Below, piece by piece: positions 6,377 to 61,200 of a DNA stretch of 64,000 nt. The stretch is taken from NCBI RefSeq assembly GCF_010389155.1, contig NC_057763.1, positions 41,832,645-41,896,644 of the forward strand, written 5' to 3'. The DNA is from Erigeron canadensis (taxonomy: Eukaryota > Streptophyta > Magnoliopsida > Asterales > Asteraceae). A model generated the notes under the pieces. That model was not told where the DNA came from and did not search any database. It saw only the letters and a list, made by a program, of their open reading frames with translations. The stretch's first letter is position 1, and every line of letters begins with the position of its first letter. Made by a program: the position numbers and the translations under genes.

Positions 6377-9300
6377 TCAACGACAATAAATAGCCTGATC
6401 AATGAATGGAGGAATTTGCTTAATCTCAGTACCAAGTTCTTGTTCAATCCTGTACCTGAGAAAACACAAAAAAAAATAGTTGATAACGGTGCAATCTTAA
6501 ACAGTAAACCCGTGCAAGTGTAAAGAAAAAAATATATACAGATTAAAGCGATCTTCATATGTGATCAGATTCACGGCTAACCCAAGGTGTCCAAATCTCC
6601 CAGATCGACCAACCTGTGTACAAAGTATTTGAGCATTAGATAATTATCATGCATGTATAAGTAGATAATTTGGTAATAATATATTCCAACCATACCCTGT
6701 GCAGATATGTTTCTGAGTTTTTTGGGAAGTCGAAATTTATAACAACATTTACTGCTTGAATATCAATACCCCTCGTGAATAAATCTGGAAACATCATATG
6801 TTACAGAGAAATAAGTTAACAAAATAGTTCAAAAACATAGACTTCAGGCTATAGTAAAATAGAAAGAAGATATACCCGTGCAGACAAGATTCCTGCAAGC
6901 ACCATTACGAAAATCATGAAATACTCTGTTACGATGATCTTGGAGCATTTTTGCATGAATGTAGAAGCAAGAGTAACCAAGCTCAGTAATTTTCTTAGCC
7001 AGTAGTTCAACTCGATTTACAGAATTGCAGAAAATGATTGATTGATTGATTTGGAGCTGCAAATAAAGAAACAAAGAGGTGATTTTCAAACTTGTAAAAT
7101 ACTAATACAGGGGGGGTTTTGATGCTTGTTTTGAAGGTGGTTATGCTATATAAAATAAATAACAAGAATAACCAGACATGATAATACGAAACGCAAACGT
7201 ATGGTCAAATATGGGTTTGCTAATTTGTTTGTTATGTAATTAGTAATGACCTTTGAAGGGTTGGAATATACGACTATTTTACAGCTCAATACTAATTACT
7301 CAATGCTACTAAGCAAACATTCACAAATTCACATTAGACAGGAAAAAATGCACTTTGCAAAATGAAGTTAGAAGTCACCAGGATAACCCCCCCCCCCCCC
7401 CCCCCCCAATTAAATAAATAAAAAAAACTCTTCTCAGTCAAACAGTTGCAATAATCAGTTTAAAAAGCAAAGTGAAACAACCCCTAAAGACATTTCATTT
7501 ACGGAGGAGAAACCTTTGAGAAAAGAGTGTTGAGGCAGTGAACTTTCTGCCTTTCTTCAACAAATGCATAGAACTGTGTTATTCCCTTAAGTGTAAGCTC
7601 ATCCATGAGGTTAATAACATACGGCTTCTGCAGAAATCTATCTTTGAATTCTTTAACGGTAACAGGAAATGTTGCTGAAAACATCAATATTTGACGATTG
7701 GTAGGCATGAAGTGAATCAGCTGCTCTACTGATGGCTGGAACTCAGGTGACAAGAGCTTATCAGCCTGCAAAAATAAAAACAGTGGTCAAACTTGGGACA
7801 AAAGCTTCTACGGTCATACAAGCAGAAGTTCTGCACTCTCATCAATTAGTATAAAAAATCAATGACCAGACCATGAAACTATCAAATAACTAATAAAAAG
7901 GCATTACAGAGGATATTATGTTTCACCTCATCCATGACAATCATTGCACAATTTTTCAAATCGCAGATTCCCTTCTTTGCAAGATCTAATATTCTTCCGG
8001 GAGTACCAACTAACAAATGAACTGGTTGATACAATCGCATGATATCATCTTTTAAACTTGTTCCGCCGGTGGTAACCATGACTTGAATGTTTAGGTGTTT
8101 TCCAAGTTCTTTGCAGACTTGTGATGTCTGAAGAGCCAATTCTCGAGTTGGAACAAGTATAACAACTGCAAGAAAATTCGAAAAGTTTAGAAACGGCACC
8201 ATAGAAGATATATAACATATTCGAGGTCTATGTTTTTATGACATGTTATCTTTAGGTACTTGTCGGTAGAGCAATAACTTTACAAAAAAGACTGTAACTG
8301 TAGAATGAACATTTTCGATCACGTTCTGCCATTTCATATGCAACAACACCCTTCACAAATAAAAATAACAAAAAGTATAGGATAGTATTCAAAAACCTTG
8401 AATAACATTGTTGTCGACATCAATTTTTTCTAAAGCAGGAATACAGAAAGCAGCAGTTTTTCCAGTTCCATTTTTAGCTCTTGCGAGAATATCGCTTCCT
8501 GTGAGAGCAATTGGGATGCTTTCCTCTTGAATTGGAGATGGCCTCTCAAATCCCTTTTCATATATCCCCATAAGCAACTCACGCTTTAGAAAATAATCTT
8601 CAAACTCATTCCCTTTTGTGGCTGTCACATCCTGAAAGCATAATAAATTAAAGACGATGCAAAAAAATACATAAAAAATACAGTAAAAACATTATTTCTT
8701 AGCAATTTTTCGCTCAATAAGATAAAAAGGGAACAAATGATGTGCAAACTCTTAATGGTGTACAGAAATAAACCAAGACATACTTCAGTCCTGTATCGAG
8801 TGTCAGCTGGTGGAAGCCTCAATTGTGCCTTCCAATCTTGGGACCTGCAAGTAGAAAAAAGATTAGACTTGGCTAAAGCATATAATAAAGTAGAATGTGA
8901 CTCGGCCATTCATTAATCAAAAAATAAAGACAGTACTTCGGTCATCATCATACATCAGGACCAAGCACCAACCTATTCCATATCTCACATGAATTAAAGA
9001 CTACAACAAAAGACCAAATCTAATCTTAAGATTCCTATCATGTCAGCTTGAGATTTTAGTTAAGTCAACGTTCTGCACTACTTGGAAGAAGTATGCCCTT
9101 GATGCAAAAAAGAATGAAGAAACAAAAACGACAAATGGAGTGTCTTTCCTTCGATTCATCGGGATCATTAAAAAAGCAAACAATAATCCATACATTGAAT
9201 TAACCTAACACCAAAACGATCACATTGGTATAACCCATATGTTTGAGACTTTGGGTGAAAAAAATCACATTTCATTCAAACTTTGTTTCTTCGAGGTTAA

Positions 9301-17147: not shown

Positions 17148-17292
17148 TTTTTTTTGACAAGTGAATTTTACCTCAGACGCGTATGATGTGTGCTAGTCGC
17201 ACAACTAAAGGGTCCTGCACTAAGCGGATCTTAAATAGCATTTCTCATCATACCACCTCCTTAATTGGAAAGTACCGTCGAGGAGAACCAAG
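17148..17292 (-). mobile_element. SINE, truncated copy (same family as 32,937)
   Basis: A poly-T stretch then tgacaagtgaattttacctc and text ending accgtcgaggagaacc match 32,937-33,075 almost base for base. On the minus strand this is the 3' part of the SINE with its A-rich tail. The tRNA-like head present at 33,075-33,165 is missing, so the copy is truncated. Confidence 0.7.
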
Positions 17293-20889: not shown

Positions 20890-22694
20890 TTTCGTATATA
20901 ATTATCAGGTTAACTTTGTAAATTAGAGCATAAGTTCTATCTACGAATCTGGGTTATTTTATTTGAAATAGAATGTCAACACCAATCTTTGATACTCGTT
21001 TACATAGCAGTAAATAGAAAATGAAATTCTTATTTAGAAAAAAAACTATTTATCGGTACAGATTGAAAGGATATCAAAAATAATATATTATGTCAACGCA
21101 AAACAACTCTAATTAATCCAAGGCAACACAACAGCCTTCCTTGTATGGAAATCGATAATTTTAACATATCATTCGCATAAATAAGATACTTTTCATTACA
21201 AGATGTCCAATCACTATGCATATCATAAATTCATACATCACAAAATAAAAATAAAAATAAGAAAAAGAAACACATTAATCTATCCTCTACATGTAAACCA
21301 TCTAAAAAGGAAAAACATCTTTGGGTTTGCATCAAATTGCTTCTATATAAACTTTTGGTCCTCACACTTCATGCTTTTCCGAATCATGCCATCAATTTCT
21401 ATGTCATATATACCTTTTTTGCTTTTCTTCTTATTTGGTATACAAAGTAAGATATTACTAGTAAAAGTATATTTGACTTAGAAGCTAATGACTTGATTCG
21501 GAAAAAAATGAAGTTTGAGGACCAAAAAGTCTATAAAGAAACAATCTTATGCAAGTCGAAGATATTCTTCCTCTTAAGCTAAGAGAAATATCACATTAGT
21601 TAAAGTGTACATTTATATAGGAATCATAATAGCTACCTTGTACCTCTAAAACCAAGAAAGCTGGAAAAAGAAAGAGATAGGCAAAAAGTAGATACTAGAT
21701 CCCCCGAACATTTTAATTGTCCTATTTTGACTGATAAAGTCTTTTTTTCCGACTTTGACCGTAATTATTCTTGTTTGTGATATATATTAAAGAATAAACG
21801 AGAGCCAACTTTTCGATAACATTCTTTTACAGTTGTACCTATCAAGAGATAAGTGTTTCATATGTCAACTAAAGGTTAGAGAATACAAAAGGCGAATAAC
21901 CACATAAGAAAATTTAAAGATCGACTAATGTAAATGCATAATGCATAAAGAAGGTAGTTATATAGAGTAATTGGGGTTGGATTGAAGATCATGAAAAGAA
22001 TAAATCAACACGGAAAAAAAGAAGAATTTTGCCATTATGGTTTGAGAAACGTGAATACTTTCACATGCTTTTACGCCCTTATAGAATGATTAAACAATGG
22101 AAAGTATTTGAATTTTGAGCATGTGCTAAAAAATGTGACCCTATTCACATGATTTACACACTTCTAAATGTAACAATACTTTAATTTGATATTAAAGTAC
22201 ACAACAAGTGAACAAACATACACCTCCATATATCTCCTATTTCACACACACTATATTACAACAAATTGTGAAGTTGATAAACAATAACACTAAAGCATAA
22301 ACTTATCTTGACATTTACAATAGTTAACATAACAAAATAAAAGAAATTCAAATAATACCGTATATATCACATATTAATGGTAAGACTAGTATTTTTCATT
22401 TATCAAATACTAATTATTATATTGATAATTATAATCATATACATATCAACCCTATTTCAACCTTAAGTTTGTACGGGATTTAATTTTAATATGAGATATG
22501 TTTTTGTTATTAATTTTTTTTAATAATTTTGTGTCTATAAAGTGTTTATTTAATTTAATATATTAATTGTAAAAAAAAAATGAAAATGACACATAAGATG
22601 AAGTCTTAGGTGTCAAAGTTTTAACATAAGTTTAGTTTTGAATAGGTCTTTAGAAGAATAAGATTCTTACTCTTTTAATATATATATATATATA
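20890..22694. other. Intergenic, no gene seen
   Basis: AT-rich with scattered ORFs (for example 21,203-21,481 plus) that show no family resemblance. An (AT)n microsatellite at 22,679-22,700 abuts the next Helitron. Confidence 0.45.
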
Positions 22695-23440
22695 TATATA
22701 ATTATTAAAACAGTAGTTAACCTAGCCTTTTAAAGGCCTCTTCAAATTTAAAGCTATTTTTAAAATTTGTCACATAGGTTTTTATCCTATGTGACATCTT
22801 ATAATTTTTGACAATATTTATCTCTGTTTTATATATGTCTTTTACAAAATTCAAAAGCAAAGAAAAAAAAAACCATATAAACTTAAAATATACTTTTAAA
22901 ACTAGAAAATATTTAACTTTTAAAATAGTTATATTATATCCTACGTATTATAAACTCTAACCATATATCACATTTATCATTTCATATATTAATTTAGTTT
23001 TTTTATTATTTTTTTCTTGGTGACCATGTAAAAACAATTTTTTTAATTTAATATAAGGTTTTTTTAAAAATTTTTTATAAACATGGAGGACTTTTCTCTT
23101 TAATTTTTATATATGTTCTTATTATTATGATTAATGTTCATCAAGTTAGTTGGTAAAAACCTCCATAATGCCCAATGAACATTTTGAAAATATTCAATTG
23201 TAAACATCATTTTTTTTTTCATATTTATCTTTAATAACATTTTGATAGTGATATATTATACCTATATTTAACATTGTTTTATTTATATTCACATGCTTAT
23301 GAATTTAATAAGAACAATCACATTGAACTAATTAAACAAAATATTTGATATTGTGTATGTCTACGTCAAAATATTTAAATCAACACTAATTGAACAGTAA
23401 CTTATAATGATACGCGCATCGCGCGGGGTAAAAGACCTAG
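22695..23440 (+). mobile_element. Non-autonomous Helitron, family H1 copy 1
   Basis: Near-identical along its length to 44,034-44,807: both run from ataattattaaaacag/aatagttaacc to a 3' hairpin (cgcgc-atc-gcgcg at 23,413-23,425), then ggggtaaaagac and CTAG with T after it. The 5' TC of this copy is blurred by the adjacent (AT)n tract. No Rep or helicase coding; about 750 bp, so mobilised in trans. Confidence 0.75.
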
Positions 23441-23544
23441 TATATATATATATATAAGTTTTTGTCATTTTATTGATAAGTTTTGTTCATGATCTACATA
23501 GTTTTTAAATTATGATATAATTATAAAATAATGAAATCCGCTTC

Positions 23545-24375
23545 ATATTCATCATTATAAAGTCAACATAAAGTGATAAACTAACCTTTTGACGCAGCGA
23601 GAATAAAGGATAAATAATTGGACTTGTTGATTATAAGAATACTCAGGAACAACTCTTCTAACTATTGTTGATTCAAAAAAGAATACCGATAATTAGGCAA
23701 TTTCACACACACTAACACACACTTGTGTATAGAGAGGAAAAAAAATAACTCTCATCAAAAAAACTGTTTACTAACAAGACTTACATCATAATTTATAGAT
23801 GGATAAATGACAATAAAACTGAAATAATTAATAACCTAACTTAAATACATATGAAAGCCAAAGAATCATAGCTAATGAAAATATTAGGAAAAGTAGTTCC
23901 ACATCACCTTTTAATGGGTTATAGTAGTCGTAAGTCATAACCCATACAAGTGGTTCCCTTCGTCCTATGCACCACTACAGGTAGCTTTATTTGGAGCATA
24001 GAGTATCAATAAAGAGAAGAGAAAAAATGGGCCGGTTGAGACATGTAATAATAAAGTTTAAAGTCAGGTCGTGTTTAATTACTTTGTTTATTTTATAATA
24101 AAATAGATAACGAAACGGTGATTACAAACACTTATTTAAAAAAAAACTATATTTCTGGTTAGCACTTTGACACTACCTTGATCAACTAATGATTGAAATG
24201 AACCGTAACCAAAATAAGCCCATTCGACATGCATATGCATATATAAAACAACAAGGCCATAAGTTAGATGCAAAGTAAGCTTCAATTAACCTCAACTAGT
24301 TGTTCGACTGCAAGTTGGTGGAAAGAGTGACACTACATCCCAAGTTAGCGCTTTGCGAAGCCCCGTTGAATAAAC
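23545..24375 (-). pseudogene. Cystatin-like family remnant (copy A), 3' part only
   Basis: The sequence matches the 3' part of the copy at 28.3-28.85 kb in the same orientation: a broken C-terminal exon near 23,935-23,990 (complement of the ...ACCACTTG..GGTTACGACTACTATAACCC text), the following intron with the same 'agacatgtaataataaagttt' words, and the alternative terminal exon region near 24,300-24,372. About 320 bp (23,590-23,907) is inserted between duplicated ccttt text. No upstream exons follow; SINE sequence starts at about 24,385. The C-terminal frame is shifted by an extra copy of 'gttatgac', so this is a dead fragment. Confidence 0.7.
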
Positions 24376-24384
24376 AAGATATTA

Positions 24385-24560
24385 AAGTAAAATAACTTAT
24401 AATGCGTTCTTCTACGGGTATTGGGTCCTAATCACGTATTTGACGGTGTACGAGGGAGGTAGAGATGTAGACAAGTTTACCGCTACCAAAGGTAAAAAGG
24501 TTGCTTCCAAGTTTTACAAAAAAAGACCTCAAACCTAGCTGGACATAAAAAGCAAACCTA
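24385..24560 (-). mobile_element. SINE, old degraded copy
   Basis: Text such as acgggtattgggtcctaatc, gacggtgtacgagggaggt and ctaccaaaggtaaaaaggtt matches the copy just downstream and the one at 50.4 kb, with many substitutions and loss of the tRNA-like head. Confidence 0.55.
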
Positions 24561-28357: not shown

Positions 28358-29166
28358 CTAACCTTTTAATAGGTTATAGTAGTCGTAACCCACACAAGTG
28401 GTTCCGTTCGTCCTACGCACCATCCCGGTATATTTGCCTGGATTAGTCCAGCCATCTACAGGTAGATTTATTTGGAGCATAGAGTATCAATAAAGAGAAT
28501 CGGCAGGATGAGACATGTAATAATAAAGTTTAAAGTCGGGTTGTGTTTACTTTGTTCAATTTATAGAAAAATAAATAACGAAAGGGATTGCAAAAACCTA
28601 TTTTAAAAAGCTACAATTTTGGTTGGCGCTTTTGCACTACCCAGTCCAACTAATGCTTGAGATGAAGAGTGACCAAAATCAGCCCATTCAGTATCCATAT
28701 ATAAAACTAGACCATAAATCTGATGCAAAGTAAGCTTCAGTTAATCTCGATTAGTTGTTCGACTGCAAGCTGGTGGAAAGAGTGACAGTATGCCCTGAGG
28801 TAGCACTTTGCGAAGCCCTGTTGAGTAAACAAGACAGTGTGGCTCTTAAGAGTAAAACATGTATGTACTAACCTTTTACAGCATTCTTGCTGTACGTTTT
28901 CAAGCGAATCAACTCAGCTGTTTTCATGTCTTTCGTCTTACCTGCAGATCCGAGATGACAAAAGTGATAAAGAGAAAATTACAAACACTATTTGGAAGGG
29001 TGCCATAACGACAAGACAGTAAGGGGTACCTTGCATAACTCTGACATATCTATGCCATAGTTCTAAAATGACATATTGATAAGATAACACAAAATTAAGT
29101 ATGCCTATTAAAAGAAGGCATACCACAAGCCTAGGACATTGCATCCAATCTGGCATGAATTCTCAA

Positions 29167-29189
29167 GGGGGGGGGGGGGGGGGGGGGGG
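29167..29189. repeat. Poly-G tract (23 G) in a copy-B intron
   Basis: Uninterrupted run of 23 G between the 54-nt and 69-nt exons of copy B. With the 21-C run at 7.4 kb these are the two longest GC homopolymers in an otherwise AT-rich window. Confidence 0.9.
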
Positions 29190-29869
29190 CAATTTACTGC
29201 ATACATAAATCGTAGATAAAATAAACAAACAACTCAGATATGCTTCCGCAAAGAATCATTCAAAATCAATAAAAAGGAGGAATAATATAAGACTAAGATT
29301 CGTGAAAACTGGTAATGGAAGAAAACAAGCAAGTTATCGAGGGAATTCAGGTAAACAATTACTACAGATATAGAGATAGGTTATATTATCACAACGTTAA
29401 CTATTATGTTTCACGAATGGAAGAGTTAAAAACCTTTCATATATTTGGGTGAAGTTTTCAAGTGGACCTTTATGTCATTTTTAAGACCTGCACAAAAACC
29501 ACATTGTTAGTGAATAAGGAAACCGGAACATAATTCTCCGGTGCAAACACAAGGTTCATAAAAGGCACATAACGCAATGCAAGATCTTTGATTGACCTTC
29601 AAAGTATAAGTAGATACAGCAAATAAGCATAGTGATTCTCTGCTTCCATATATTAAATCTATCCACAAGTTGGTATAGAAAAGAAAAATATAGCATTACA
29701 TGGAAGACTAACCTCTCAAAGTTTCATATATAGACGTCAAGCGAGACAAGTGAGATATTGACATTGCTTTATTACCTGCATGCAATAGAAGGCAATAAAA
29801 CTGGAGACACTGAGAAAAAAAGATTGAAATAAAATAGTTCCACTAATTTCAAGAAAAGGTGAAACACAA

Positions 29870-29931
29870 AGTAAACAAAAACAGCATTATGTATGGGCAA
29901 GCAAACAAAAACAGCATTATGTATGGGCAAG
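29870..29931. repeat. Two-copy 29-bp tandem repeat
   Basis: The unit 'caaacaaaaacagcattatg...tatgggcaag' occurs twice in direct succession without differences inside the intron between the two 63-nt exons of copy B. The 86-codon minus ORF here gains its repeated text from this. Confidence 0.8.
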
Positions 29932-31827
29932 GTAGGGCATGGTGAGTGATGAGTTGGGTTGGCTCACAAAACGTTTGATTCCTATCTTTTTTTTTTTTGA
30001 GAGTATAGAAGCTAGATGAATACATGGAAGATGAACCTTTCAAAATTCTGGGGATTAATTTCAGGCGAGACAAGCGAGATATTGCCATGGCTTTCTTACC
30101 TGCATGCAAGATAAGGCATTAAAGCAGGTGCCCCGAGATGGAAGGAAAACTTTGCAATATATGTGGTTTTTCCAAAAGCAGCATACATGAACAGAAGAAA
30201 AGCCAAAATGTTACTCGTATTAGTTTATGGTAACGATTAGAGGCTGCAAAATGGACCAATAAAGCACATTATGTCATGGGTACAATTATTAATATAAGTT
30301 GGGGTGGCCAAATTTTTTTTCATAATCCACCGATTTTTACATAAATGGTTACCAGCTCTGAGAATTGTTTCAGCATTTTAAAAGAATTGATAATTTATGG
30401 GCAACATCCTCTAGTACAAAAGTGTTGCATATTTGCAGTTGCAATGGGAATACAAAAGGGATTAAGGATTCTAAGAAGAATGTGATAACCAAATCAAAAG
30501 ATGAGAGATACTCTAAATAACCACATACCAACTGGTGTGCGGTTGGTAAGGACAAACTTGGTCAAGGTTTTCTTTCCATAATCACTCTTGCATACAACTT
30601 TGGCTTCGTAGACACCAAGGTCCCCTTCTTCAATGGCCTCTATGGTCAGTTAGAAGAAATAAGCCTTGGTAAGTTTGAGGTATTTGCACTCCAACATCTC
30701 AATATCATGAAGGTTGTTGTGTTCACTCGTTTTAACATGCTAATTATAAAGATAAATTAGTGTATAAAATAAAACAATGAATGATGAAAACAAAGTCTGA
30801 AAAGTTCCAAGCAGGTAGAATTAAACTATACCATCTGACAAACGTTGTTAAAAGCAGCAACGGCAAAGTCACCAACCACACGAGCAAAGGGATGATCGAG
30901 CTGAATAGACCTTTTATGTTGCTCAGCTAGCACTTTAGTTAGGTCGACAAGAGGACGCTACCACACAAATGAAATATGTATGTATCACAAACATGTATAA
31001 GACCAAATTAAAGAGAGATGTATATATATATGTTCTATACATACAGTCCCCTCATCAATTTGTTTAAACTCCAACCAACTTTTCTGCTCCTCATCTTTTA
31101 AGGGAACACCGTGTAATTCCGGGGTTTCTGAAGGATGATTATACACTGAAAAGGAAATCTGACCAAGTCACTAAATATTTATATACATGTCGTGTTGACT
31201 CAATATCTATATCTATAATCTCTTAATAACATATTGAAACTCTATTTTAAGTAATTTAAACACTTTTTTCAATATCCCCACATTGCCCCTAATTCACACA
31301 TTACCTTTAATTCTATATCTCTAAACACACAAACACCATACCATGATCTAACACGCAATAACTTTTTTCTCTTCTTCCTATTTACACACACGCTTATCAA
31401 TTCCTCCCCCACTGTTTTGTATCATCATTATCACCGTTTAACTGCTGACCAACCCTCGTATATGTAAACAGCATATACACCGCAACCCTGATGATTCATG
31501 TTAATCATACCCAAAAAACATAAAATCGCTTAAATTTGTTGGAATAAAAAGCAATATCCAAAATTTGGTTTCTTCTAACATCAAATTAGAAATAAACACC
31601 AGCGGAATTATTATATGTGTTTGCATAAACAAATATAAATATAAATTAATTAATAAAGGTGACAAAATTTGATAGTGAATCCAGCTGGCGTAAGTTTGAT
31701 CTCCTTTCTGAAATTAATATATTATATAAATTTACTCACAACATTAAACAAAACAAACTCACTCGCAGTCTTATATATATATATGTATACGATAGGATAT
31801 GAGAGAGAGATATAACTTACGAAGCAT

Positions 31828-32936
31828 TATCGCGCCTGTGTATCAAAGAGACGGAAACAATCGACTAATAAAAGTAAATGCAATTTTAATTTGCCGGGGA
31901 ACAACACATACATACACTCACACATAAGCATGTCCAACAGAAAAAGGAATTAAACCGACTCAAAAGTCAAAACTTTGGGTATTACATTTATTAAAGTCAA
32001 AGTCAAAACTTTGGGTATTACATTTCTTTTTATGGATTTTTATATTATAAACAAACAAAAATATCCGTTAATTCTTTATTTTTTATTTAATATATATCGA
32101 CAATATTTTTACATTCAATCATTTAATACACTTATCGTTTAATAATTAAAAAAATAAACAAGCCTCTAATTAATTCTTGTTGGAGCAATTTTTCATTGGT
32201 AAATGTATGTTTTTTTAAAAAACATTATTTAAAAATTTATTAAAAAATGCTAGTAAGAAAATAGCAAGCACAAGACACGATTCAACAAACAAATGAGATA
32301 AAAAGGAATAAATTCTAACGATACAATACAAACACGCAACATACGGGCGGGTACTAAAGTCGGAATGAAGATCCCAAGCAACGCCGAATGAATGATTTCT
32401 CAGAAAAGAAATTAACCGAACACCCGTTGCATCATAATACAAATTCAAAAGAATATCATTTTTTAATAAAAACTTCTTGGGTCCAAATGCCAAGACATAG
32501 ATTTTCCCCACATGAGTTTCTTACGAAATTGTAAAAGAATATCACTGGAAAAAACTGTAAAATCAACTCAAAACTTAGTTAATTATTATTGGAGCAAAAT
32601 CATTACTAGTAATTGTTTAAAAACAAATAAAATAAATTCTTGGGTTTCAATCCCAATGGTAAAGGTTTCCTGTACGAGTTGCTTTTAGAATTTTAGAAGC
32701 ATGCCGTCGAACATAAAATTCGTCGTTTAAAAAATTAATTGTTAAAATTGTTCTAGACTTATAGACTTGGTAGTATTTGACAGATGAAAAAAAAGTTTCT
32801 GCTAGATTTTTGTTATGGAATAAATAATGATACCCGACTCATTTTACAAGTATTATTATTCCGTAATATAAATGTAAGTTATTATATGGATATAATTTAA
32901 GATAAAGATTTTTTTAAGTTAAAATTTTTCAAAACT
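31828..32936. other. Promoter side of copy B and intergenic DNA
   Basis: Upstream of the copy-B ATG lies plausible 5' UTR; no clear TATA box was placed. At 31,955-32,025 the phrase aaagtcaaaactttgggtattacattt occurs twice in tandem (about 45-bp spacing). The 98-codon minus ORF at 32,215-32,511 shows no family resemblance. Confidence 0.4.
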
Positions 32937-33165
32937 TTTTTTGACAAGTGAATTTTACCTCAGACGCGTATGATGTTTGCTAATCGCACAACAAAAGGGT
33001 CCCGCACTAAGCGGATCTTAAATACCTTTTCTCACCATACCACCTCCTTAATTGGAAAATACCGTCGAGGAGAACCTCCCAAGGCTCGAACTCGAGACTT
33101 TAGAGTAAACTCTTCCGGAGCCCCACATAGCAGGTTTAATGAAACATCCCTGACCAATATAACTT
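32937..33165 (-). mobile_element. tRNA-derived SINE, full-length-looking copy
   Basis: On the minus strand the element starts near ttggtcagggatgtttcatt, has a B-box-like gagttcgagcc, then ggaggttctcctcgacggta, ggtggtatggtgag and ggtaaaattcacttgtcaaa with an A-rich tail. The plus-strand 71-codon ORF is the antisense of this. The truncated sister is at 17,148-17,292. Confidence 0.7.
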
Positions 33166-34039
33166 TATATTTTTATCTATGTTAAATGATGAGTTTATTG
33201 TTAATTAAAAAATTTGAAAGATTGTAACTTTGTAAACATGGAAGGAATTGTAATTATAAGATTACGATGGGTTTATTTTGCTTGGACTATTCATTAAAAG
33301 TTATTCCAAGTGATTTAGTTTAAGGTCTTGGGTGTAACAGCTCAGTTTGAAAAATCTATAGCCAATGATGAGCGCCCGGTTAAAGTTGCAATCGTCACAA
33401 GCATATATAAAGTGAATAAATGTTGTATACTTCTGGCTCAAAATCTAAAATGTTGATTTTTTTCATATATACAAACCTTTAATCATATCTTGAAATACAA
33501 TGGAGATGTCACAAAATTATACTACTAGAACATATATATGATTTAACTGTAAACCATAAGTAATTGGTCAAATTAACATCAGTTAACCATAATTAAGTAT
33601 AGAATATTGATCAAAGATGAGTACACCACATCTTCTCATAGGCTTTTCGTAGGTCTAACAAGTTCCAAAAATTAGGCAAAGATAGATATACATTGACAGT
33701 TTCAAATCTAACGGGTAACCAAATTGTAACTACGTTTGCATATATGACCCATGTTTAAGTATAAAATTACACGGCGCTTAATTAGGTATAATAATTATGC
33801 TTAAATTCAAGAAGGTTGACATTGTTTAGAACTACTAGGGCCATCCAATATCACCAAAAATCTACCTCTGGTTCTATCCCACAACTACCAGATTCATGAG
33901 TTCTTGTCTGCTCACACCACAAAGCCCAAGTCTAAACCTGGGAGGCAAAAAATATAAACTACATCAGAATTCATGTAAAATCCCACTTCAATACTTTCGT
34001 ATGTATTTAGTATTTACCATCGTAAACGACTTACCTCCT

Positions 34040-35501
34040 ACCAATGGGTTATAGTAGTCGTAACCACAGGTAGTGCCATCTTCCCTTCGTCCTACACACC
34101 ATCTCGGTATATTTGCCTGAATTAGTCCAGCCATCTACAGGTTATTCGGAGCATACAGTATCAATAAAGAGAATGGGCAGGTTGAGACATGTAATAATAA
34201 AGTTTTAAAGTCGGGTTGTGTTTACTTTGTTCAATTTATAGGAAAATAAATAACGCAAGGGTGATTGCAAAAACCTATTTTAAAAAGCTACATTTTTTGT
34301 TAGCACTACCCTGTCCAACCAATGATTCAGATGAAGAGTGACCAAAATCAGCCCATTCGGTATGCATATATAAAACAAGACCATAAATCCGATGCAAAGT
34401 AAGCTTTATTTAACCTCGATTAGTTCGACTGCAAGTTGGTGGAAAGAGTGACAGTATGCCCCGAGGTAGCACTTTGTGAAGCCCTGTTGAGTAAACAAGA
34501 CCGTGTAGTTCTTGCTAAGAAGATAAACCAATAAAAACATATAGCATAACTTCTAAATGAGGTCTTCATACCAATTAAAAGGTTATAAATACTCAAACTT
34601 TTCCTTAAGAGTGAAACGTGTATGTACTAACCTTTTACAGCATTTTCGTTGTACTTTTTCAGGCAAATCAACTCAGCTGTTTTCATGCCTTTCTTCTTAC
34701 CTGTAGATCCGAGATGAAAAAAATGATAAATAGAAAATTAGAAAAACTATATGGGAGGGTGCTGTAACGACAAGACTTTAAGGGGTACCTTGCATATAGT
34801 CCCAAAATGACATTCTAGAAAACAGTACTACAAAAGAGAGTACACACATGCCTTCTTATAAGATTTTCCAAATAATCACATACCAACGGGTGTGTGCCGG
34901 TACCTAAAAACACGAGCAATGTTATCCTACCATCATCACTCTCAAACTCAACTATGGCTTCATAGACGTCAAAATTGCCTTGCCCAATGGCTTCTATGAT
35001 GATATAGAAGTAATACCTCCCGGTTACTTTTATATATTTGAACTCCATAATTTCATACTCCTAAAGGATAACATGTTGCTCCTTGGCAAGCTATAACAAC
35101 AACAAAAAATCTGTTTATATACGATGACAGATGATTAATCAGTGATAAAATTTCCTAATCTAAAATCTCGAAAATAGGTGAAATGAAACTCATACCGTTT
35201 TATACGACTCATTAAAGACGTAAACGACAAAGTCGTCAGCAATTTTTACAATTGAATACTCGAGTCTAATTGGCTTTTTTCTTGCTTCAACTATTCGGTA
35301 AAGAAAGTGTAGAAAGTAGAGACTGCCATAAACATAAAGAAACGCATATACATAAAAACACATTCAAATACAAATGAGTAGAAACATATCAAAATATGAA
35401 TATACATACAACTCCCTCATCCAATTCTTTGAACTGTTGCCAACTATCCTGCTCCTCGTCTTTCAAGCCAACAAGGTATCTAATTCTTTGACGATGACAC
35501 G
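34040..35501 (-). pseudogene. Cystatin-like family, copy C (left palindrome arm)
   Basis: Recognisable exons (minus): 35410-35501 (LVGLKDEEQDSWQQFKELDE), 35196-35322 (EYSIVKIADDFVVYVFNES; 127 nt against 126 in copy B, a +1 shift), 34884-35090 (cystatin sheet exon), 34632-34700 and about 34040-34134 (DGWTNSGKYTEMVCRTKG, then frame lost through a net +4 insertion). In the sheet exon a TAG at 35,061-35,063 interrupts the frame, but the same TAG can serve as a new acceptor, giving EYEIMEFKYIKVTGRYYFY onward with the loop ahead of it deleted. One base is missing before its donor. The first exon (ATG) is absent, cut off by the inversion breakpoint. An alternative last exon is conserved at 34,483-34,410. 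Probably non-functional. Confidence 0.75.
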
Positions 35502-35894
35502 CTGAAAAGTAAAGGTTGTTACCATCCTTAATTTGTTTAACTTAAACTATATAAACGACCAATGGGTGAAATCATGTGTCCACACATGAAGACTAGAGGT
35601 TACAAGTTCAAAATGACAAATGGAGAAATTGAATTTGATCCAACATAATAGTTAGTTGCAGTATGAGCTTTAAGTATTAAAACATTATATCCAGATAAAC
35701 GACCTATAAAACAAATAATAAACACACATTAGTTAACTTAAAGCTCATACTACAACTAACTATTTGTCATTTTGAACTTGTAACCTCTAGTCTTTATATG
35801 TAGACACATGATTTCACCCATTGGTCGTTTATATATACATATATATCTATTTAAGGGTACACAAATTAAGGATGGTAACAACCTTTACTCTTCG

Positions 35895-37376
35895 GTGTGT
35901 CATCGTCAAAGAATTGGATACCTTGTTGCCTTGAAAGACGAGGAGCAGATAGTTGGCAACAGTTCTAAGAATTGGATGAGGGGGTTGTATGTATATTCAT
36001 ATTTTGATCTGTTTCTACTCATTTGTATTTGTATGCGTATATATGTGTGTTTTTATGTATATGCGTTTCTTTATGTTTATGGCAGTCTCTACTTTCTACA
36101 CTTTCTTTACCGAATAGTTGAAGCAAGAAAAAAGCCAATTAGACTCGAGTATTCAATTGTAAAAATTGCTGACGACTTTGTCGTTTACGTCTTTAATGAG
36201 TCGTATAAAACGGTATGAGTTTCATTTCACTTGTTTTCGAGATTTTAGATTAGGAAATTTTATCACTGATTAATCATCTGTCATCGTATATAAACAGATT
36301 TTTTTGTTGTTGTTATAGCTTGCCAAGGAGCAACATGTTATCCTTTAGGAGTATGAAATTATGGAGTTCAAATATATAAAAGTAACCGGGAGGTATTACT
36401 TCTATATCATCATAGAAGCCATTGGGCAAGGCAATTTTGACGTCTATGAAGCCATAGTTGAGTTTGAGAGTGATGATGGTAGGATAACATTGCTCGTGTT
36501 TTTAGGTACCGGCACACACCCGTTGGTATGTGATTATTTGGAAAATCTTATAAGAAGGCATGAGTGTACTCTCTTTTGTAGTACTGTTTTCTAGAATGTC
36601 ATTTTGGGACTATATGCAAGGTACCCCTTAAAGTCTTGTCGTTACAGCACCCTCCCATATAGTTTTTCTAATTTTCTATTTATCATTTTTTTCATCTCGG
36701 ATCTACAGGTAAGAAGAAAGGCATGAAAACAGCTTAGTTGATTTGCCTGAAAAAGTACAACGAAAATGCTGTAAAAGGTTAGTACATACACGTTTCACTC
36801 TTAAGGAAAAGTTTGAGTATTTATAACCTTTTAATTGGTATGAAGACCTCATTTAGAAGTTATGCTATATGTTTTTATTGGTTTATCTTCTTAGCAAGAA
36901 CTACACGATCTTGTTTACTCAAGAGAGCTTCACAAAGTGCTACCTCGGGGCATACTGTCACTCTTTCCACCAACTTGCAGTCGAACTAATCGAGGTTAAA
37001 TAAAGCTTACTTTGCATCGGATTTATGGTCTTGTTTTATATATGCATACCGAATGGGCTGATTTTGGTCACTCTTCATCTGAATTATTGGTTGGACAGGG
37101 TAGTGCTAACCAAAAATGTAGCTTTTTAAAATAGGTTTTTGCAATCACCCTTGCGTTATTTATTTTCCTATAAATTGAACAAAGTAAACACAACCCGACT
37201 TTAAAACTTTATTATTACATGTCTCAACCTGCCCATTCTCTTTATTGATACTGTATGCTCCGAATAACCTGTAGATGGCTGGACTAATCCAGGCAAATAT
37301 ACCGAGATGGTGTGTAGGACGAAGGGAAGATGGCACTACCTGTGGTTACGACTACTATAACCCATTGGTGGGAGGT
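35895..37376 (+). pseudogene. Cystatin-like family, copy D (right palindrome arm)
   Basis: Mirror of copy C with the same TAG/acceptor change and frame losses plus private damage: the first acceptor AG is lost (ttcggtg instead of ttcagcg), one G is missing in the DEEQDSW codons so the frame breaks, and the 69-nt exon has a new TAG (36,735-36,737) where copy C has GAG. The 36,361-36,594 frame still encodes the sheet text RYYFYIIIEAIGQGNFDVYE. More decayed than C, so a dead copy. Confidence 0.78.
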
Positions 37377-37962
37377 AAGTCGTTTACGATGGTAAATACT
37401 AAATACATACGAAAGTATTGAAGTGAGATTTTACATGAATTCTGATGTAGTTTATATTTTTGCCTCCCAGGCTTTGTGGTGTGAGCAGACAAGAACTCAT
37501 GAATCTGGTAGTTGTGGGATAGAACCAGAGGTAGATTTTTAGTGATATTGGATGGCCCTAGTAGTTCTAAAAAATGTCAACCTTCTTGAATTTAAGCATA
37601 ATTATTATACCTAATTAAGCGCCGTGTAATTTTATACTTAAACATGGGTCATATATGCAAACGTAGTTACAATTTGGTTGCCCGTTAGATTTAAAACTGT
37701 CAATGTATATCTATCTTTGCCTAGTTTTGGAACCTGTTAGACCTACAAAAAGCCTATGAGAAGATGTGGTGTACTCATGTTAATTATGGTTAACTGATGT
37801 TAATTTGACCAATAACTTATGGTTTACAGTTAAATCATATATATGTTCTAGTAGTATATTTTGTGACATCTCCATTGTACTTCAAGATATGATTAAAGGT
37901 TTGTATATATGAAAAAAATCAACATTTTAGATTTTGAGTCGGAAGTATACAACATTTATTCA

Positions 37963-38130
37963 TTTTGGCGTTCACGAAGCCAAAGTTGAGTTTGAGAGTG
38001 ATGATGGTGGGATGACATTGCTCATGGTTTTAGGTACCGGCCGCACACACGTTAGTATGTGAATATTTGGAGAATCTTATAAGAACGCATATGTGTACTC
38101 TCTTTTGTAGTACTACTAAGATGTAGGGTG
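37963..38130 (+). pseudogene. Cystatin-like sheet-exon fragment (copy E)
   Basis: Starting exactly where the right palindrome arm ends, this stretch repeats the second half of the sheet exon (EAKVEFESDDGGMTLLMVLG) and its donor region up to ctctcttttgtagtact. It lies in direct orientation 1.5 kb downstream of the same exon in copy D. Only about 165 bp is present. Confidence 0.75.
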
Positions 38131-44028: not shown

Positions 44029-44033
44029 CCATA

Positions 44034-44807
44034 TCTATATAATTATTAAAACAATAGTTAACCTAGCCTTTTAAAGGCCTCTTCAAATTTAAAGCTATTT
44101 TTAAAATTTGCCACATAGGTTTTTATCCTATGTGGCATCTCTATAATTTTTGACAATATTTATCTCTATTTTATATATGTCTTTTATAAAATTCAAAAGC
44201 AAAGAAAAAAAAATCATAAACTGTATAAACTTAAAATATACTTTTAAAACTGGAAAATATTTAGTTTTCAAAATAGTTATATTCAATCCTACGTATTATA
44301 AACTCTAACTATATCACATTTATCATTTGATATATTAATTTAGTTTTCTTTTTTATTATCTTTTTCTTGGTGATCATGTAAAAACAATTTTCTTTTTTAT
44401 TTAATATAAGGGTTTTTTTTTTTAATTTTTTTATAAACATGGAGGACTTTTCTCTTTAATTTTTATATATGTTCTTATTATTATGATTAAGGTTGAAGGA
44501 AATGTTCATTAACTTAGTTGGTAAAAACCTCCATAATGCCCAATGAACATTTTGAAAATATTCAAGTGTAAACATCAATTGTTTTCATATTTATCTTTAA
44601 TAACATTTTGATAGTGATATATTAAACCCATATTTAACATTGTTTTATTTATATTCACATGCTTATGAAATTAATAAGAACAATCACATTGAACTAATTA
44701 AACAAAATATTTGTTATTGTGTATGTCTACATCAAAACATTTAAATCAACACTAATTGAACAATAACTTATAATAATACGCGCATCGCGCGGGGTAAAAA
44801 TACCTAG
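44034..44807 (+). mobile_element. Non-autonomous Helitron, family H1 copy 2 (clean ends)
   Basis: Starts TC (tctatataattattaaaaca) preceded by A and ends CTAG followed by T, i.e. inserted between A and T as Helitrons do. The 3' hairpin cgcgc-atc-gcgcg is followed by ggggtaaaaatac before CTAG. 774 bp, near-identical to 22,695-23,440, non-coding. Confidence 0.8.
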
Positions 44808-46369
44808 TGTATATATATATATAGAATACTCGTATAATATACATACTAGATTATACTCCGTGTGAAACGCGAAAAAAACTTATGAAAAATTACATTTTAT
44901 TCCTATAAAAAGTTAACATAATGGTATAATAAATACTTAAAAGCTATTAAAATTTACAGAATAATAAATAAAATAAGAATAATGAAAATGAACCGTTTGA
45001 TTTTTTCATAAAACAACCATACTATAAATATAATTTAAAAGACTAAGGTTTGACATTGGTTTTCCATCCACTTGACAAGTGTTTTTTAGTTTTATGTAGT
45101 ATCACAAATGATTATATTTTTAAATATTACAATACACGTTTTTTTCCCCAGTGAATTAAAGCTAAAACGGTTGGTCCAATGCATGTAGGTAGTTAACTAC
45201 GTATAATATAAAAATTTATAAGGATTCAAGGTATCCACAAAATAATTAAATACACAAATAGTAGTGGTTTTGTAGAAGCTGATTTTATGTCTATGATCCA
45301 CAACCATGTAATCTCCTTCATTGAAGCTATAGCGAAGTTATTGATTTTCCTAACACCTCCTTCATTAAAGATGAGGTCGAATGGGACAATTTTTGGGTTG
45401 TACGTGTAACAAATGTGGTTCTTGACTTTTGGACTATGTGTATTTTTGACTAAGTATTAGTTAATCAATATATGTTCTAGTGCAATTTAAGGTTCAATTG
45501 AGTGCAATGTGTTCATATGGGCCAATTTATTGTTCAAGTTGAGAATTATGTGCTAGTCGAGATCATTAATAGGTGCTAATCGGTTTTTCACTTAGATGAC
45601 TTTCAAGCTAACTAGTAAAATGTAAATGGATCTTACCCATGGGTTGTGCCCAGCCCATGACCCACCCAAGTTAACCCAACCCTATCCCCTTTCCCCCGTC
45701 CATTTCTCCATCTTTTTCTCTTTCTTATTTACTTACATCTCAGTCTTAAAAAACTAACTTCATCAATGAGAAAGGTAGCAAAAGTTGAAGGAAAGTATAG
45801 TGAACATTTGTTTTTATACCAATTTGTGTTAGGTAGACAAACTAAACATTTACTTGGTATAATTTAACTATTCAACAAAACCAGTCAATTTAATCATGAA
45901 AACAATTTTCCTTCATCTCCGCCGTTCAACGGACAGGTTTTAAGCCCTCGTTTAGATAACAAATAACTTTATAAAACTTCTTTATTTAATGATACAAATA
46001 AATCTCTGTACTCAAATTTTTCCTTTTTTTTAAAGGTCCTTATATAATAATTTGAAAACCCAATTACATAAATTTACAAGTTTTGTTTAAAAAAAATAAG
46101 TTTACAAAAATTTATTCTGTAGAGATATAGACAAACGAATATTAATTAATATATACTATATATATATATATATTAAAAGCATTGGTGATATACCCAATAC
46201 ATATCGATAATATCATGATACACTTTCAGGTATTGTTTATTATTCTTTTGTGTGTGTTTGATTTCTTGCAAAGTTGCAGGGGAGAAAAAGAAGAAATATA
46301 AAAGAGAATAAAACTAAACTAAACAAGACAAAACAAAAACCCATCATCATCATCCGTTCAAATCCGTTG
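44808..46369. other. AT-rich intergenic DNA, no gene seen
   Basis: No recognisable gene. At 44,845-44,870 actccgtgtgaaacgcg recalls the CGCG-type repeat heads at 11,250 and 51,815. Confidence 0.4.
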
Positions 46370-48971: not shown

Positions 48972-49357
48972 AGGGTGATCATCAAATGGAAACTAAATTA
49001 AAATAAAAACAAATAAGAACACCTAAAACTACATGCATTAAAAGGTTATAAAACTAACATAGTGTATAACTAATTATCATTATTTAAGTGTTTAACAACA
49101 CATTGGCATGTCAAAATCAAGAAAATCATGTTTTTGTTTTGTGCATCCATCTTGGATGCATATTCTTCAAAATGATGCATCCAACAAAAAACGTGATTTT
49201 TTCGATTTTGACGGATCAATGTGTTGTTAAACACTTAAATAATGATAATTAGTTATGCACTATGTTAGTTTTATGCACTTTTAATGCATCAAAATGATGT
49301 TTTTAACTGTTCTCACCGTTCTTATTTTAAAAGTGTTCTCACCGAAGTGTTACCCTA
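48972..49357. mobile_element. Long foldback MITE
   Basis: The arms from about 49,033 (ttaaaaggttataaaact...taacaacacattg) to 49,105 reappear inverted at 49,215-49,287 (caatgtgttgttaaacactt...), with an inner loop built on tgcatcc/ggatgca. The outer ends are cagggtgatca and gtgttaccctat. Transcription would give a long hairpin RNA. Superfamily not certain. Confidence 0.65.
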
Positions 49358-58230: not shown

Positions 58231-58283
58231 ACATACATAGTTCATGACATATTTCATGTGTTTGGGAGCTTGAAGTTCAACCA

Positions 58284-61200
58284 ATGAGTTTTAATGTTGT
58301 CAAGGAAGTAGGAAGGTCAATTCAAATTGATCATCCCATTGTTAGTGTTACTGGTGGTTTTGCCGTTGCCGCTTTTAACGAGGCCTGTGAGATGGTATTG
58401 GCACATTCCACCTGCTTTGAACTATTGAGACTGCTTTTTGTCGTTCAATATTTACCTTTTTTTTTGTTTGTTTGCTAGTATGTTAAGAATGGTGAACCCA
58501 ACAACCTCCATGATTTCGAATTTATGGAGTGTAAATACCTGAAACTTTCCAAGACTTATTACTTTTACGTGATTATAGAGGCCATTGAAGAAGGAAATCT
58601 TGGCGTATATGAGACCCAAGTTGTGTGCAGTAGTGATGGCAACATGAGAACTTTGGCCAAGTTTCTTCTTACCGATTGGAAACCAGTTGGTACATAATTA
58701 TTTGCGGCATCATATCTTTTGTCCTGACTCTTGTCTTGATTTGGTTATGATTTTCTTATGGAACATTGCGCATAATTCCAAGAGCATTTAAATAAAATGG
58801 TTTAAGTTTGTTTTTGTTCTTTCCAAGGACGAGTGGCTACCATTAAAAACTACTTTTAAAAACTTAGCTTTAAATGAAATGGGTCAAAGTGATTGCCTGG
58901 TTTTTACAACTTATACCAGTAATAAACATGTTTGTTCTCTAAAATTCGTATAGTTATTATTCCAATAGAATTTTTGAAGCCACACTTAGTATAGTAGTTC
59001 TCGATAAAAAAAATCAAGTGTAAATTCATTAGGAAGTTATTGTAGGCCATCCTAACCTGTTTTAGAATAAGCACTTATTTTGACTAGTACTCGATCGGCC
59101 CTAACTGCTATTTACCAACCTCTAATAATTACCAAAACTAGTATATTGGTTTCTTTGTGATTATTAGAGGTGGCAAAATGTAAGGGTCGGATCGGGTTGG
59201 GTGACGGGTCAAAACGGTCCGGGTCAAAATGAATCACTTTGAAAACGGGTCGAAACGGATCCGGGTCAATACGGGTCCGGGTCGAAATGGGTCATTTCAA
59301 AAATGAGCTTAATTATATGTTTTCTTAATCATGGTTATTGTTTATTAAAAGCAATGTTAATATTTTTATGAAATAAAAGTATATCTTATATCTAAATGAA
59401 TTATTCAAAAGGCTGTGAATTTAATCTTTAGATCTCGTATTCGTTAATTATATGTGGTGTTGTGTGTTTGTCATATATTTTATATATAAATATGATATTG
59501 ATAATAACTTTAAGTATTATAAAAGCTTTTATTTTTAAATCGTAAATATCATAATAGGTAGCTAGCAGTGTAGCACTATAAAAGAAGCCCACTCTATCTT
59601 TTTAGCAACCTCTTTGTCCAATCTATTTCTCACCAAATCAGTGTACATATTTCTTTTTACAATGTACAATTTATTGTAGCACACTTTTCTTAAAGTTAGC
59701 AATATTAAATCTGGAAATAGTAATGTTTATATTCCACACACCTGTTTCACCACCACCATATGTCCGTATCCACACACCTGACTTATCTGGGATTAAAATG
59801 ATCCTCTCAACATCACCGTCCTTTTCTTTTCTCATTCAACCTTGTTGCCCATTCCAACCCATCCAGGCTAAAATTTTTACCCAATTAGATCCATAGTTTT
59901 TTTAAATGTATCTGTAGATCACTCAATTCCACCCGCTTATATAATGACTATCACCCATTCACACCCAATCAATTACTTTTGGGGAACTATTGCCATCTCT
60001 AGTGATTATATATGCTGCATTTTTTTGGATTCATTTACTTTTGCATGACAATTAGAATAGATTACAACCTTATTTTCCTTTTTTGGTGTCTTGTACTTTG
60101 ATACCTTATCTTCCTTGCAGGCACAAAAGCGATGGCAGTATATCTCTTTTCAAGTTTGAAATCTGTATGCAAAACTGTGGAAGGTTTGTTTTATGTGTAT
60201 GGTTATGATTTCAGTCGAACTTCCATACCAAGTTATTCGGGTTAATCAGAGAATTCTGCATTCATATTTGCCTCCTGCTAGGCTTGATTTTGTTAGCACA
60301 TTACGATTGGGTTCCAATAAAATGTTTTGTTACCAATTGAGGTTTATGTGCAGATGTTGCCGATGAAAAATGGAATGAGCTGAGAAAAGTACTAAGTCTT
60401 ATAGAAGGTTTTTGTTTCTCCCTTTGTTGAATCTGTTTTGTGATCGTCATCCCACTGGCTACACAAATTTTTGGCCTTGGTGCTGGTGGGCATGATCATT
60501 ATAGAAACTGAGATCCTGTCATAGTTGTCAAAGGTGAAAGCGAACTCAAAGCGCAATGACCCCAAATGGGGCCTAGGCGAGAGGCGCGAAAAAAAGCGCG
60601 GGCCCGAAAAAGAAAAAGCGCACTTAGGTAAAAACAAACCAATGTCATTCAAATTACTAAATACCATTTAAATAAACCATAGCATTCAACCAAAAAGTTC
60701 AAAAGACATTGTTTAAACCAAATTGTTCAAAACCATCGACCAAACTTAAGAAGAGAAGTCTTAATAATATAAAAATAGAAGAAACCTTAATTTTAGTTGA
60801 ATGAAAAATACTCTCTGATGAATGATGATATTGATATATATGGAACAAAGATTCTTCTGATATCCCCATAATATACGTGATGTTTTCTTTGACATGCATT
60901 ACAAGCTCCTTGAAATACAAAGGGTTTATTTATAAAGTTTAAACTGACGTACAGCTAGTGGGCCTTGGGCCCATGGTTTCAGGCGTTAAGGCTGGGCCTC
61001 GCCTGCGCTTTGCTCCTAGGCGCAAGAGGCTCTCACCTTTGACAACTATGGATCCTGTAGAAGGAAATCACGCTTGATTTATAATTTCTCATTGTTAAAT
61101 TGGAGACACAACTATGCCTGTTTAGGGCACCCTTCCATACAAGGCTTCTCACTTCCATCTTGTTGGATGCACAGATAGGGAACAAGGCTTACCAATCCAT

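What the first reader, a model, noticed from the sequence alone, without database searches (positions are those of the whole stretch)
33413..37962. A 4.5-kb near-perfect palindrome carrying two mirrored cystatin-like copies
Seen directly: two arms of about 2.25 kb are reverse complements with a 60-bp spacer, and the 77-codon ORFs they carry differ at one residue. Palindromes this long are unstable, so it is recent, maintained by gene conversion, or an assembly artefact such as a folded-back read. Small differences and private mutations in the right arm argue against a pure artefact. Transcription through it would make long double-stranded RNA able to silence the sister genes at 28 and 58 kb.
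Basis: partly seen in the sequence, partly recalled or inferred. Interest (0 to 1): 0.85.

Follow-up and report, generated by a model that had tools for sequence, protein, structure and literature searches.

The report
Inverted duplicate of a dead cystatin-like gene
In what looks like a daisy-family plant genome, a stretch holding a broken protease-inhibitor-like gene has been copied in mirror image beside itself, probably one to two million years ago, giving a 4.6-kb palindrome of a known kind that could produce silencing RNAs but is not shown to.

Summary
The palindrome is in the sequence: arms 33409-35675 and 35736-37966 around a 60-nt spacer. It is not near-perfect: 48 substitutions in 2204 aligned columns (97.8% identity) and 9 indels. 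Of 23 differences that could be compared with outside copies, 11 are derived in the right arm, 6 in the left, 6 undecided, so a folded-back read is unlikely. The mirrored genes belong to a cystatin-like family and run head-to-head outward from the centre. Both look dead: read like the 30-kb sister they share a frameshift and an in-frame stop; the '77-codon ORF' is an exon piece run into intron. The right arm ends within 5 nt of the start of a third, truncated cystatin-like exon (37962-38114), which marks a real junction and suggests the right arm is the inverted copy. Mid-arm is unusually similar (5 of 844) against 3.5-6% at both ends, suggesting partial gene conversion. Long dsRNA is possible but undemonstrated: the arms share exact 21-mers with pieces at 24, 28 and 38 kb, but at 58 kb none within 3 mismatches. 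Verdict: a new example of a known kind.

The parts
33409..35675 (-). Left arm (gene sense on minus strand), 2267 nt; probably the original copy
   Evidence: 'original' is inference
35676..35735 (.). 60-nt non-palindromic spacer
   Evidence: (I13)
35736..37966 (+). Right arm (gene sense on plus strand), 2231 nt; probably the inverted copy
   Evidence: 'copy' is inference
35410..35501 (-). Left-arm exon A (N-terminal part of the cystatin-like protein), frame kept to its donor
   Evidence: borders by hand on AG/GT, checked
35896..35986 (+). Right-arm exon A: acceptor CAG reads CGG (35893-35895), 1-nt deletion near 35947
35196..35322 (-). Left-arm exon B, one nt longer than in the 30-kb sister (frameshift shared with right arm)
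   Evidence: (126 against 125 nt to the same cut)
36086..36212 (+). Right-arm exon B, same extra nt
34884..35090 (-). Left-arm exon C with in-frame TAG (35061-35063) in the sister's reading frame
36319..36525 (+). Right-arm exon C with the same in-frame TAG (36346-36348)
36361..36594 (+). Right-arm '77-codon ORF': exon C piece plus intron read-through
34815..35048 (-). Left-arm '77-codon ORF', one residue different
34632..34700 (-). Left-arm short downstream exon D, no private stop
36709..36777 (+). Right-arm short downstream exon D with a private stop codon (TAG at 36735-36737; GAG in the left arm)
37962..38114 (+). Third cystatin-like piece (3' half of exon C plus start of the intron), truncated at the right end of the palindrome
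30505..31120 (-). Sister gene (exons A-C), with an in-frame stop in exon C
28361..29041 (-). Downstream part of the 30-kb sister unit, 89-90% identical to the arms over aligned columns
23900..24385 (-). Downstream part of a further copy, 83-84% identical to the arms
58275..58690 (+). Sister gene, exons B and C, about 60% identical in DNA to the arms over the exon C block

Best explanation
This is a genuine inverted segmental duplication inside a local cluster of cystatin-like genes in a plant, probably of the daisy family. Proposed steps: (1) A minus-strand copy that had probably already lost its frame lay left of a plus-strand relative (the 38-kb piece). (2) In one repair or replication-switch event, synthesis running rightward folded back near 35.7 kb, copied the left arm in reverse out to 33409, and rejoined within exon C of the 38-kb relative, deleting its 5' part and whatever lay between. 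(3) Both arms then gathered their own changes for about 1-2 million years, with partial homogenisation of the middle of the arms by conversion. It probably makes no protein. Any effect would come from siRNAs if a transcript crosses the centre. Shown from sequence: the arms, orientation, shared and private lesions, the junction, the uneven divergence. Inferred: order of events, template switching, conversion, age, inertness.
For: Arms and spacer. Family: the five named hits of eight are from Tanacetum coccineum; a profile of ten sequences matches PDB multicystatin 4lzi at E 2.2e-8 and other cystatins or cystatin-derived binders at 0.005 or weaker. Exon B frameshift and exon C TAG shared by both arms. 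Of 23 compared differences 11 are right-derived, 6 left-derived, 6 undecided; the right arm alone has lost the exon A acceptor, has a stop in exon D and a 1-nt deletion in exon A. The right palindrome end (37966) and the start of the truncated exon (37962) fall within 5 nt, with about 1 nt of overlap. Relatives lie on the minus strand to the left (24, 28-31 kb) and on the plus strand to the right (38, 58 kb), so orientation flips at the palindrome centre. Emptiest 860-column stretch has 4 substitutions against a permuted mean of 13.4, P 3e-4.
Against: The variance-to-mean test in 250-column bins was not significant (P 0.08), and the stretch lengths of the scan were chosen after seeing the alignment, so conversion is suggested only; local constraint or mutation-rate differences could contribute. 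The direction (right copied from left) rests on the junction argument; the 11:6 split does not decide it. Shared lesions could also have been spread by conversion rather than predate the duplication. Alternative splicing could rescue a frame: an AG at the exon C stop exists in both arms, and the right arm's 1-nt deletion brings its exons A and B into one open frame. No reads, second assembly or relative's locus was examined.
Confidence: 0.68

Rival explanations
1. An older head-to-head gene pair, not a fresh inverted copy: the right gene already stood in tandem with the 38-kb piece, and the arms look alike because conversion between them has homogenised an ancient pair.
For: Divergence is lowest in mid-arm and higher at both ends, as conversion would leave it. 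In Arabidopsis the VIM4-VIM2 pair is described as a likely ancient inverted duplication with near-perfect homology across the region (PMC13213937, sections 6 and 9).
Against: Conversion does not explain why the homology stops within 5 nt of the truncation of the 38-kb exon. The homology also runs on past the last recognised exon to sharp ends.
Confidence: 0.17
2. A natural hairpin-RNA locus: transcripts that start in one arm and cross the 60-nt spacer fold into long dsRNA, are diced to siRNAs, and silence or methylate the arms and close relatives. (Compatible with the duplication origin above.)
For: The stem is long enough: 1968 aligned columns lie in perfect runs of 21 or more, longest 257. 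A head-to-head 6.4-kb repeat with a 50-bp spacer is reported to do this at VIM4-VIM2 in Arabidopsis Cvi-0 (PMC13213937). Exact arm 21-mers start at 54 of 880 positions at 28-29 kb, 18 of 1780 around 24 kb and 7 of 313 at 38 kb.
Against: Gene sense runs outward in both arms, so the genes' own transcripts are not complementary to each other. At 58 kb 0 of 880 positions are within 3 mismatches; in 29.1-31.3 kb, which holds the sister's exons A-C, 0 of 2180 are within 1 mismatch and 6 within 2. No RNA data.
Confidence: 0.13
3. Assembly artefact: a folded-back read, or an inverted misjoin of two haplotypes.
For: About 2% arm divergence is within the range of heterozygosity of an outcrossing plant (recalled). 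Artificial palindromes in long reads after whole-genome amplification are documented (PMC6218980, listing and start of abstract only). No reads were available.
Against: A folded molecule would not give 48 substitutions, 31 of them transitions, and five indels of 12 nt or more, nor private derived changes in both arms. Two misjoined haplotypes would not be expected to end their homology at a truncated gene piece.
Confidence: 0.06
4. A foldback-type transposon whose long terminal inverted repeats are the arms.
For: Long inverted arms with a short spacer.
Against: The arms hold exons and introns of the cystatin-like family. No word longer than 4 nt is shared between the short flanks compared at the two ends, so no target-site duplication is visible. 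No further copy of the outer arm (33409-34000) lies elsewhere in the window (at E 1e-10; 0 shared 30-nt words); the rest of the genome was not searched.
Confidence: 0.02

Closest known systems
VIM4-VIM2 inverted repeat of Arabidopsis thaliana Cvi-0 (PMC13213937; outline, passages, sections 6 and 9 seen)
   Same: Head-to-head related genes, arms of kilobases, 50-60-nt spacer, uneven similarity along the arms.
   Different: There the two genes are 99.86% identical from start to stop codon and siRNAs are measured. Here the genes look dead, the arms are 97.8% identical and no RNA data exist.
PAI4-PAI1 inverted repeat of Arabidopsis (as described in PMC13213937)
   Same: Gene-derived inverted repeat with siRNAs and DNA methylation.
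   Different: Tail-to-tail there, so readthrough of one gene can enter the other (inference); head-to-head here.
Arm-to-arm gene conversion in Y-chromosome palindromes (PMC3403216, listing and start of abstract only)
   Same: Possible arm-to-arm homogenisation.
   Different: Far shorter and more diverged (recalled comparison); no evidence of sex linkage or of preserving a function.
Plant cystatins (multicystatin 4lzi and others)
   Same: The family profile matches them.
   Different: No member of the alignment matched a Pfam cystatin family at E up to 1; the arm copies have broken frames.

Membership tests
Inverted segmental (gene) duplication | Two reverse-complement copies of a gene-bearing segment adjacent to each other | tested here: met
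Inverted segmental (gene) duplication | Defined breakpoint against unrelated or truncated sequence | tested here: met
   right end at the truncated exon
Inverted segmental (gene) duplication | Absence of the second arm in an outgroup locus | not testable with these tools
   no outgroup plant locus was reached; the genome search on the window's own genome did not complete eight times
Natural hairpin-siRNA locus (PAI, VIM4-VIM2 type) | Long stem with short loop | tested here: met
Natural hairpin-siRNA locus (PAI, VIM4-VIM2 type) | Transcript crossing the centre and 21-24-nt siRNAs | not testable with these tools
   no RNA reads
Natural hairpin-siRNA locus (PAI, VIM4-VIM2 type) | siRNA-length identity to a coding target | tested here: inconclusive
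   exact 21-mers at 24, 28-29 and 38 kb, in pieces whose coding status is unclear; none within 3 mismatches at 58 kb
Conversion-maintained palindrome | Stretch of the arms more alike than the rest of the arms | tested here: inconclusive
   scan tests P 3e-4 to 1e-3, bin test P 0.08
Cystatin family | Sequence match to solved cystatins | tested here: met
   family profile E 2.2e-8 to multicystatin; the single arm ORF alone matched nothing at E up to 10
Cystatin family | Pfam cystatin model match | tested here: not met
   of 10 members scanned none matched a family named cystatin at E up to 1; one matched SQAPI weakly (0.017)
Foldback transposon | Target-site duplication at both ends | tested here: not met
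   longest word shared by the short flanks compared is 4 nt

The most novel reading that the evidence does not exclude
A head-to-head palindrome made of a dead cystatin-like copy has become a trans-acting siRNA source that dampens or methylates the most similar members of its own protease-inhibitor-like cluster, kept effective by conversion in the middle of the arms while its proteins decayed.
Probability: 0.08. Interest if true: 0.55.

Novelty: new member of a known kind. Interest (0 to 1): 0.3.

Why it matters
Gene-derived inverted repeats are a proposed birthplace of silencing RNAs in plants (recalled). This one shows its breakpoint, its broken source gene and its relatives within 64 kb, so it could be used to ask whether a head-to-head palindrome of pseudogenes yields siRNAs and whether its arms are still being homogenised.

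Tried and rejected
A folded-back read was rejected on the substitution and indel pattern. A transposon origin was rejected for lack of a visible target-site duplication and because of the gene content. Rfam gave 0 families at gathering score over the whole window. Pfam scans of ten single ORFs gave no cystatin match, nor did the ten family members; a single-sequence PDB search gave nothing; only the family profile did. The best-named relative of the IQ-motif neighbour was Tanacetum coccineum (46% identity over 73% of the query), which did not fix a genus. The 77-residue ORF found no candidate in the protein database. My early view that head-to-head orientation excludes a hairpin was dropped after reading parts of PMC13213937. 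My early reading of a stop in right-arm exon A was dropped: after the 1-nt deletion it is out of frame.

In one search one printed translation of the 30-kb exon B was in a wrong frame (my anchor word was absent); one search replaces it. The 11:6 split uses 23 of the 48 substitutions, those inside blocks with an outside copy; 6 of the 23 were undecided and all indels were left out. Two of the 11 (34039, 35387) lie in poorly aligned context. Exon A-B sites rest on one outside copy (30 kb) that is about 40% diverged. Paper searches were read as listings, with only PMC13213937 opened.

Full report
What is there. The window holds an inverted repeat with arms 33409-35675 and 35736-37966 around a 60-nt spacer. 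A dedicated alignment gives 2204 aligned columns, 48 substitutions (31 transitions, 17 transversions; 97.8% identity) and nine indels of 1, 19, 1, 13, 1, 12, 1, 14 and 28 nt. The whole-span BLAST figure of 94.0% is lower because it aligns through the spacer and counts gap columns. 'Near-perfect' is too strong.

Setting. ORFs towards the two ends of the window read as a DEAD-box helicase (7.9-8.2 kb, Pfam E 3.4e-18) and, below the family cut-off, an IQ-motif protein (55.8-56.4 kb, E 0.011); the latter's best-named relative is an IQ-DOMAIN 31-like protein of Tanacetum coccineum. The family in the palindrome gave eight database hits, five of them named, all five from Tanacetum coccineum. The species was not identified; a plant of the daisy family is an inference.

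The gene. Comparing the copies in the window gives a multi-exon gene: exon A, exon B, exon C, then short downstream exons, of which one (D) is placed here. Exon borders were set by hand on AG/GT signals and checked. A profile of ten sequences matches PDB multicystatin 4lzi (E 2.2e-8) and other cystatins or cystatin-derived binders at 0.005 or weaker. None of the ten matches a Pfam family named cystatin at E up to 1, and the single arm ORF matches no solved structure at E up to 10. 'Cystatin-like' is thus a fair name for the family. Both arm genes read outward from the centre: head-to-head.

The genes look dead. Spliced like the 30-kb sister, both arms have an exon B one nucleotide longer, which breaks the frame after exon A in the left arm, and both have an in-frame TAG in exon C. 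The right arm alone has CGG for CAG at the exon A acceptor, a 1-nt deletion in exon A and a stop in exon D. Cautions: the right arm's deletion brings its exons A and B into one open frame, and the AG of the exon C stop could serve as an alternative acceptor.

Is it an artefact? In blocks where an outside copy aligns, 23 of the 48 substitutions could be compared: 11 are derived in the right arm, 6 in the left, 6 undecided. Two sequences have thus diverged independently. A folded molecule would not do this. Two misjoined haplotypes could, but would not be expected to end their homology at a gene break. No reads were available.

The junction. The right end of the palindrome (37966) lies within 5 nt of the point (37962) where a 153-nt piece of exon C and intron, 88-89% identical to the arms, begins on the plus strand. 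Its own 5' half is missing. The two sequences overlap there by about one base. The simplest reading is that the right arm is the inverted copy and that its far end was joined into this third gene, as expected from template switching with end joining. Minus-strand relatives lie to the left (24, 28-31 kb, left arm) and plus-strand ones to the right (right arm, 38, 58 kb).

Age and conversion. K2P distance is 0.0221. At recalled plant rates of 5-9e-9 per site per year this gives 1.2-2.2 million years if there was no conversion. Divergence is uneven: 18 of 518 (outer), 8 of 560, 5 of 844 (core) and 17 of 282 (nearest the centre). The emptiest 860-column stretch has 4 substitutions against a permuted mean of 13.4 (P 3e-4, 3000 permutations); lengths of 600 and 1300 gave P 1e-3 and 3e-4. 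These lengths were chosen after seeing the alignment. A variance test in 250-column bins gives P 0.08, so the evidence is suggestive, not firm. The blocks 34043-34513 and 34604-34796 both differ from the 28-29 kb copy by 11-12%, so in the part with an outside copy constraint is not an obvious cause; the outer and central parts could not be normalised this way. The excess near the centre would also fit rearrangement of an unstable palindrome centre.

Silencing. The arms could form a stem with 1968 columns in perfect runs of 21 or more. The published VIM4-VIM2 locus of Arabidopsis Cvi-0 (PMC13213937; outline, passages and sections 6 and 9 seen) reports that a head-to-head 6.4-kb repeat with a 50-bp spacer yields siRNAs, probably through transcripts that start across the centre. 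Here 21-mers common to both arms match exactly at 18 of 1780 positions around 24 kb, 54 of 880 at 28-29 kb, 7 of 313 just right of the palindrome, 0 of 2180 at 29.1-31.3 kb, 0 of 880 at 58 kb and 0 of 880 at 61.4-62.3 kb. Within 3 mismatches the counts are 12 at 29.1-31.3 kb, 3 at 61.4-62.3 kb and 0 at 58 kb, as in a control stretch at 45-47 kb (0 of 1980).

Verdict. A legible gene-cluster rearrangement: an inverted duplicate of a pseudogene, about 1-2 million years old, possibly touched by conversion. New example, known kind.

Noticed in passing
29167-29189: A run of 23 G on the plus strand (C in gene sense) inside the 28-31 kb sister unit; another run of 21 C lies at 7387-7407. Such runs are often unreliable in assemblies (recalled).
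   Followed up: no
22690-23456 and 44031-44823: A direct repeat of about 0.8 kb at 91% identity, 21 kb apart.
   Followed up: no
21302-21578, 22573-22809, 49033-49289: Self-complementary stretches of about 240-280 nt, like small inverted-repeat transposons.
   Followed up: no
32936-33076 and 17149-17289: A 141-nt dispersed repeat at 94% identity, one copy just left of the palindrome.
   Followed up: no
29717-30103: The 30-kb sister unit seems to carry repeated short exons of similar sequence (GKKAMAISRLSRL... and GNKAMSISHLSRL...), suggesting exon duplication.
   Followed up: partly
35365-35675: The innermost part of the arms is the most diverged (17 of 282 columns) and holds two of the larger indels, with a third at its edge, as if the palindrome centre has been rearranged.
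   Followed up: partly
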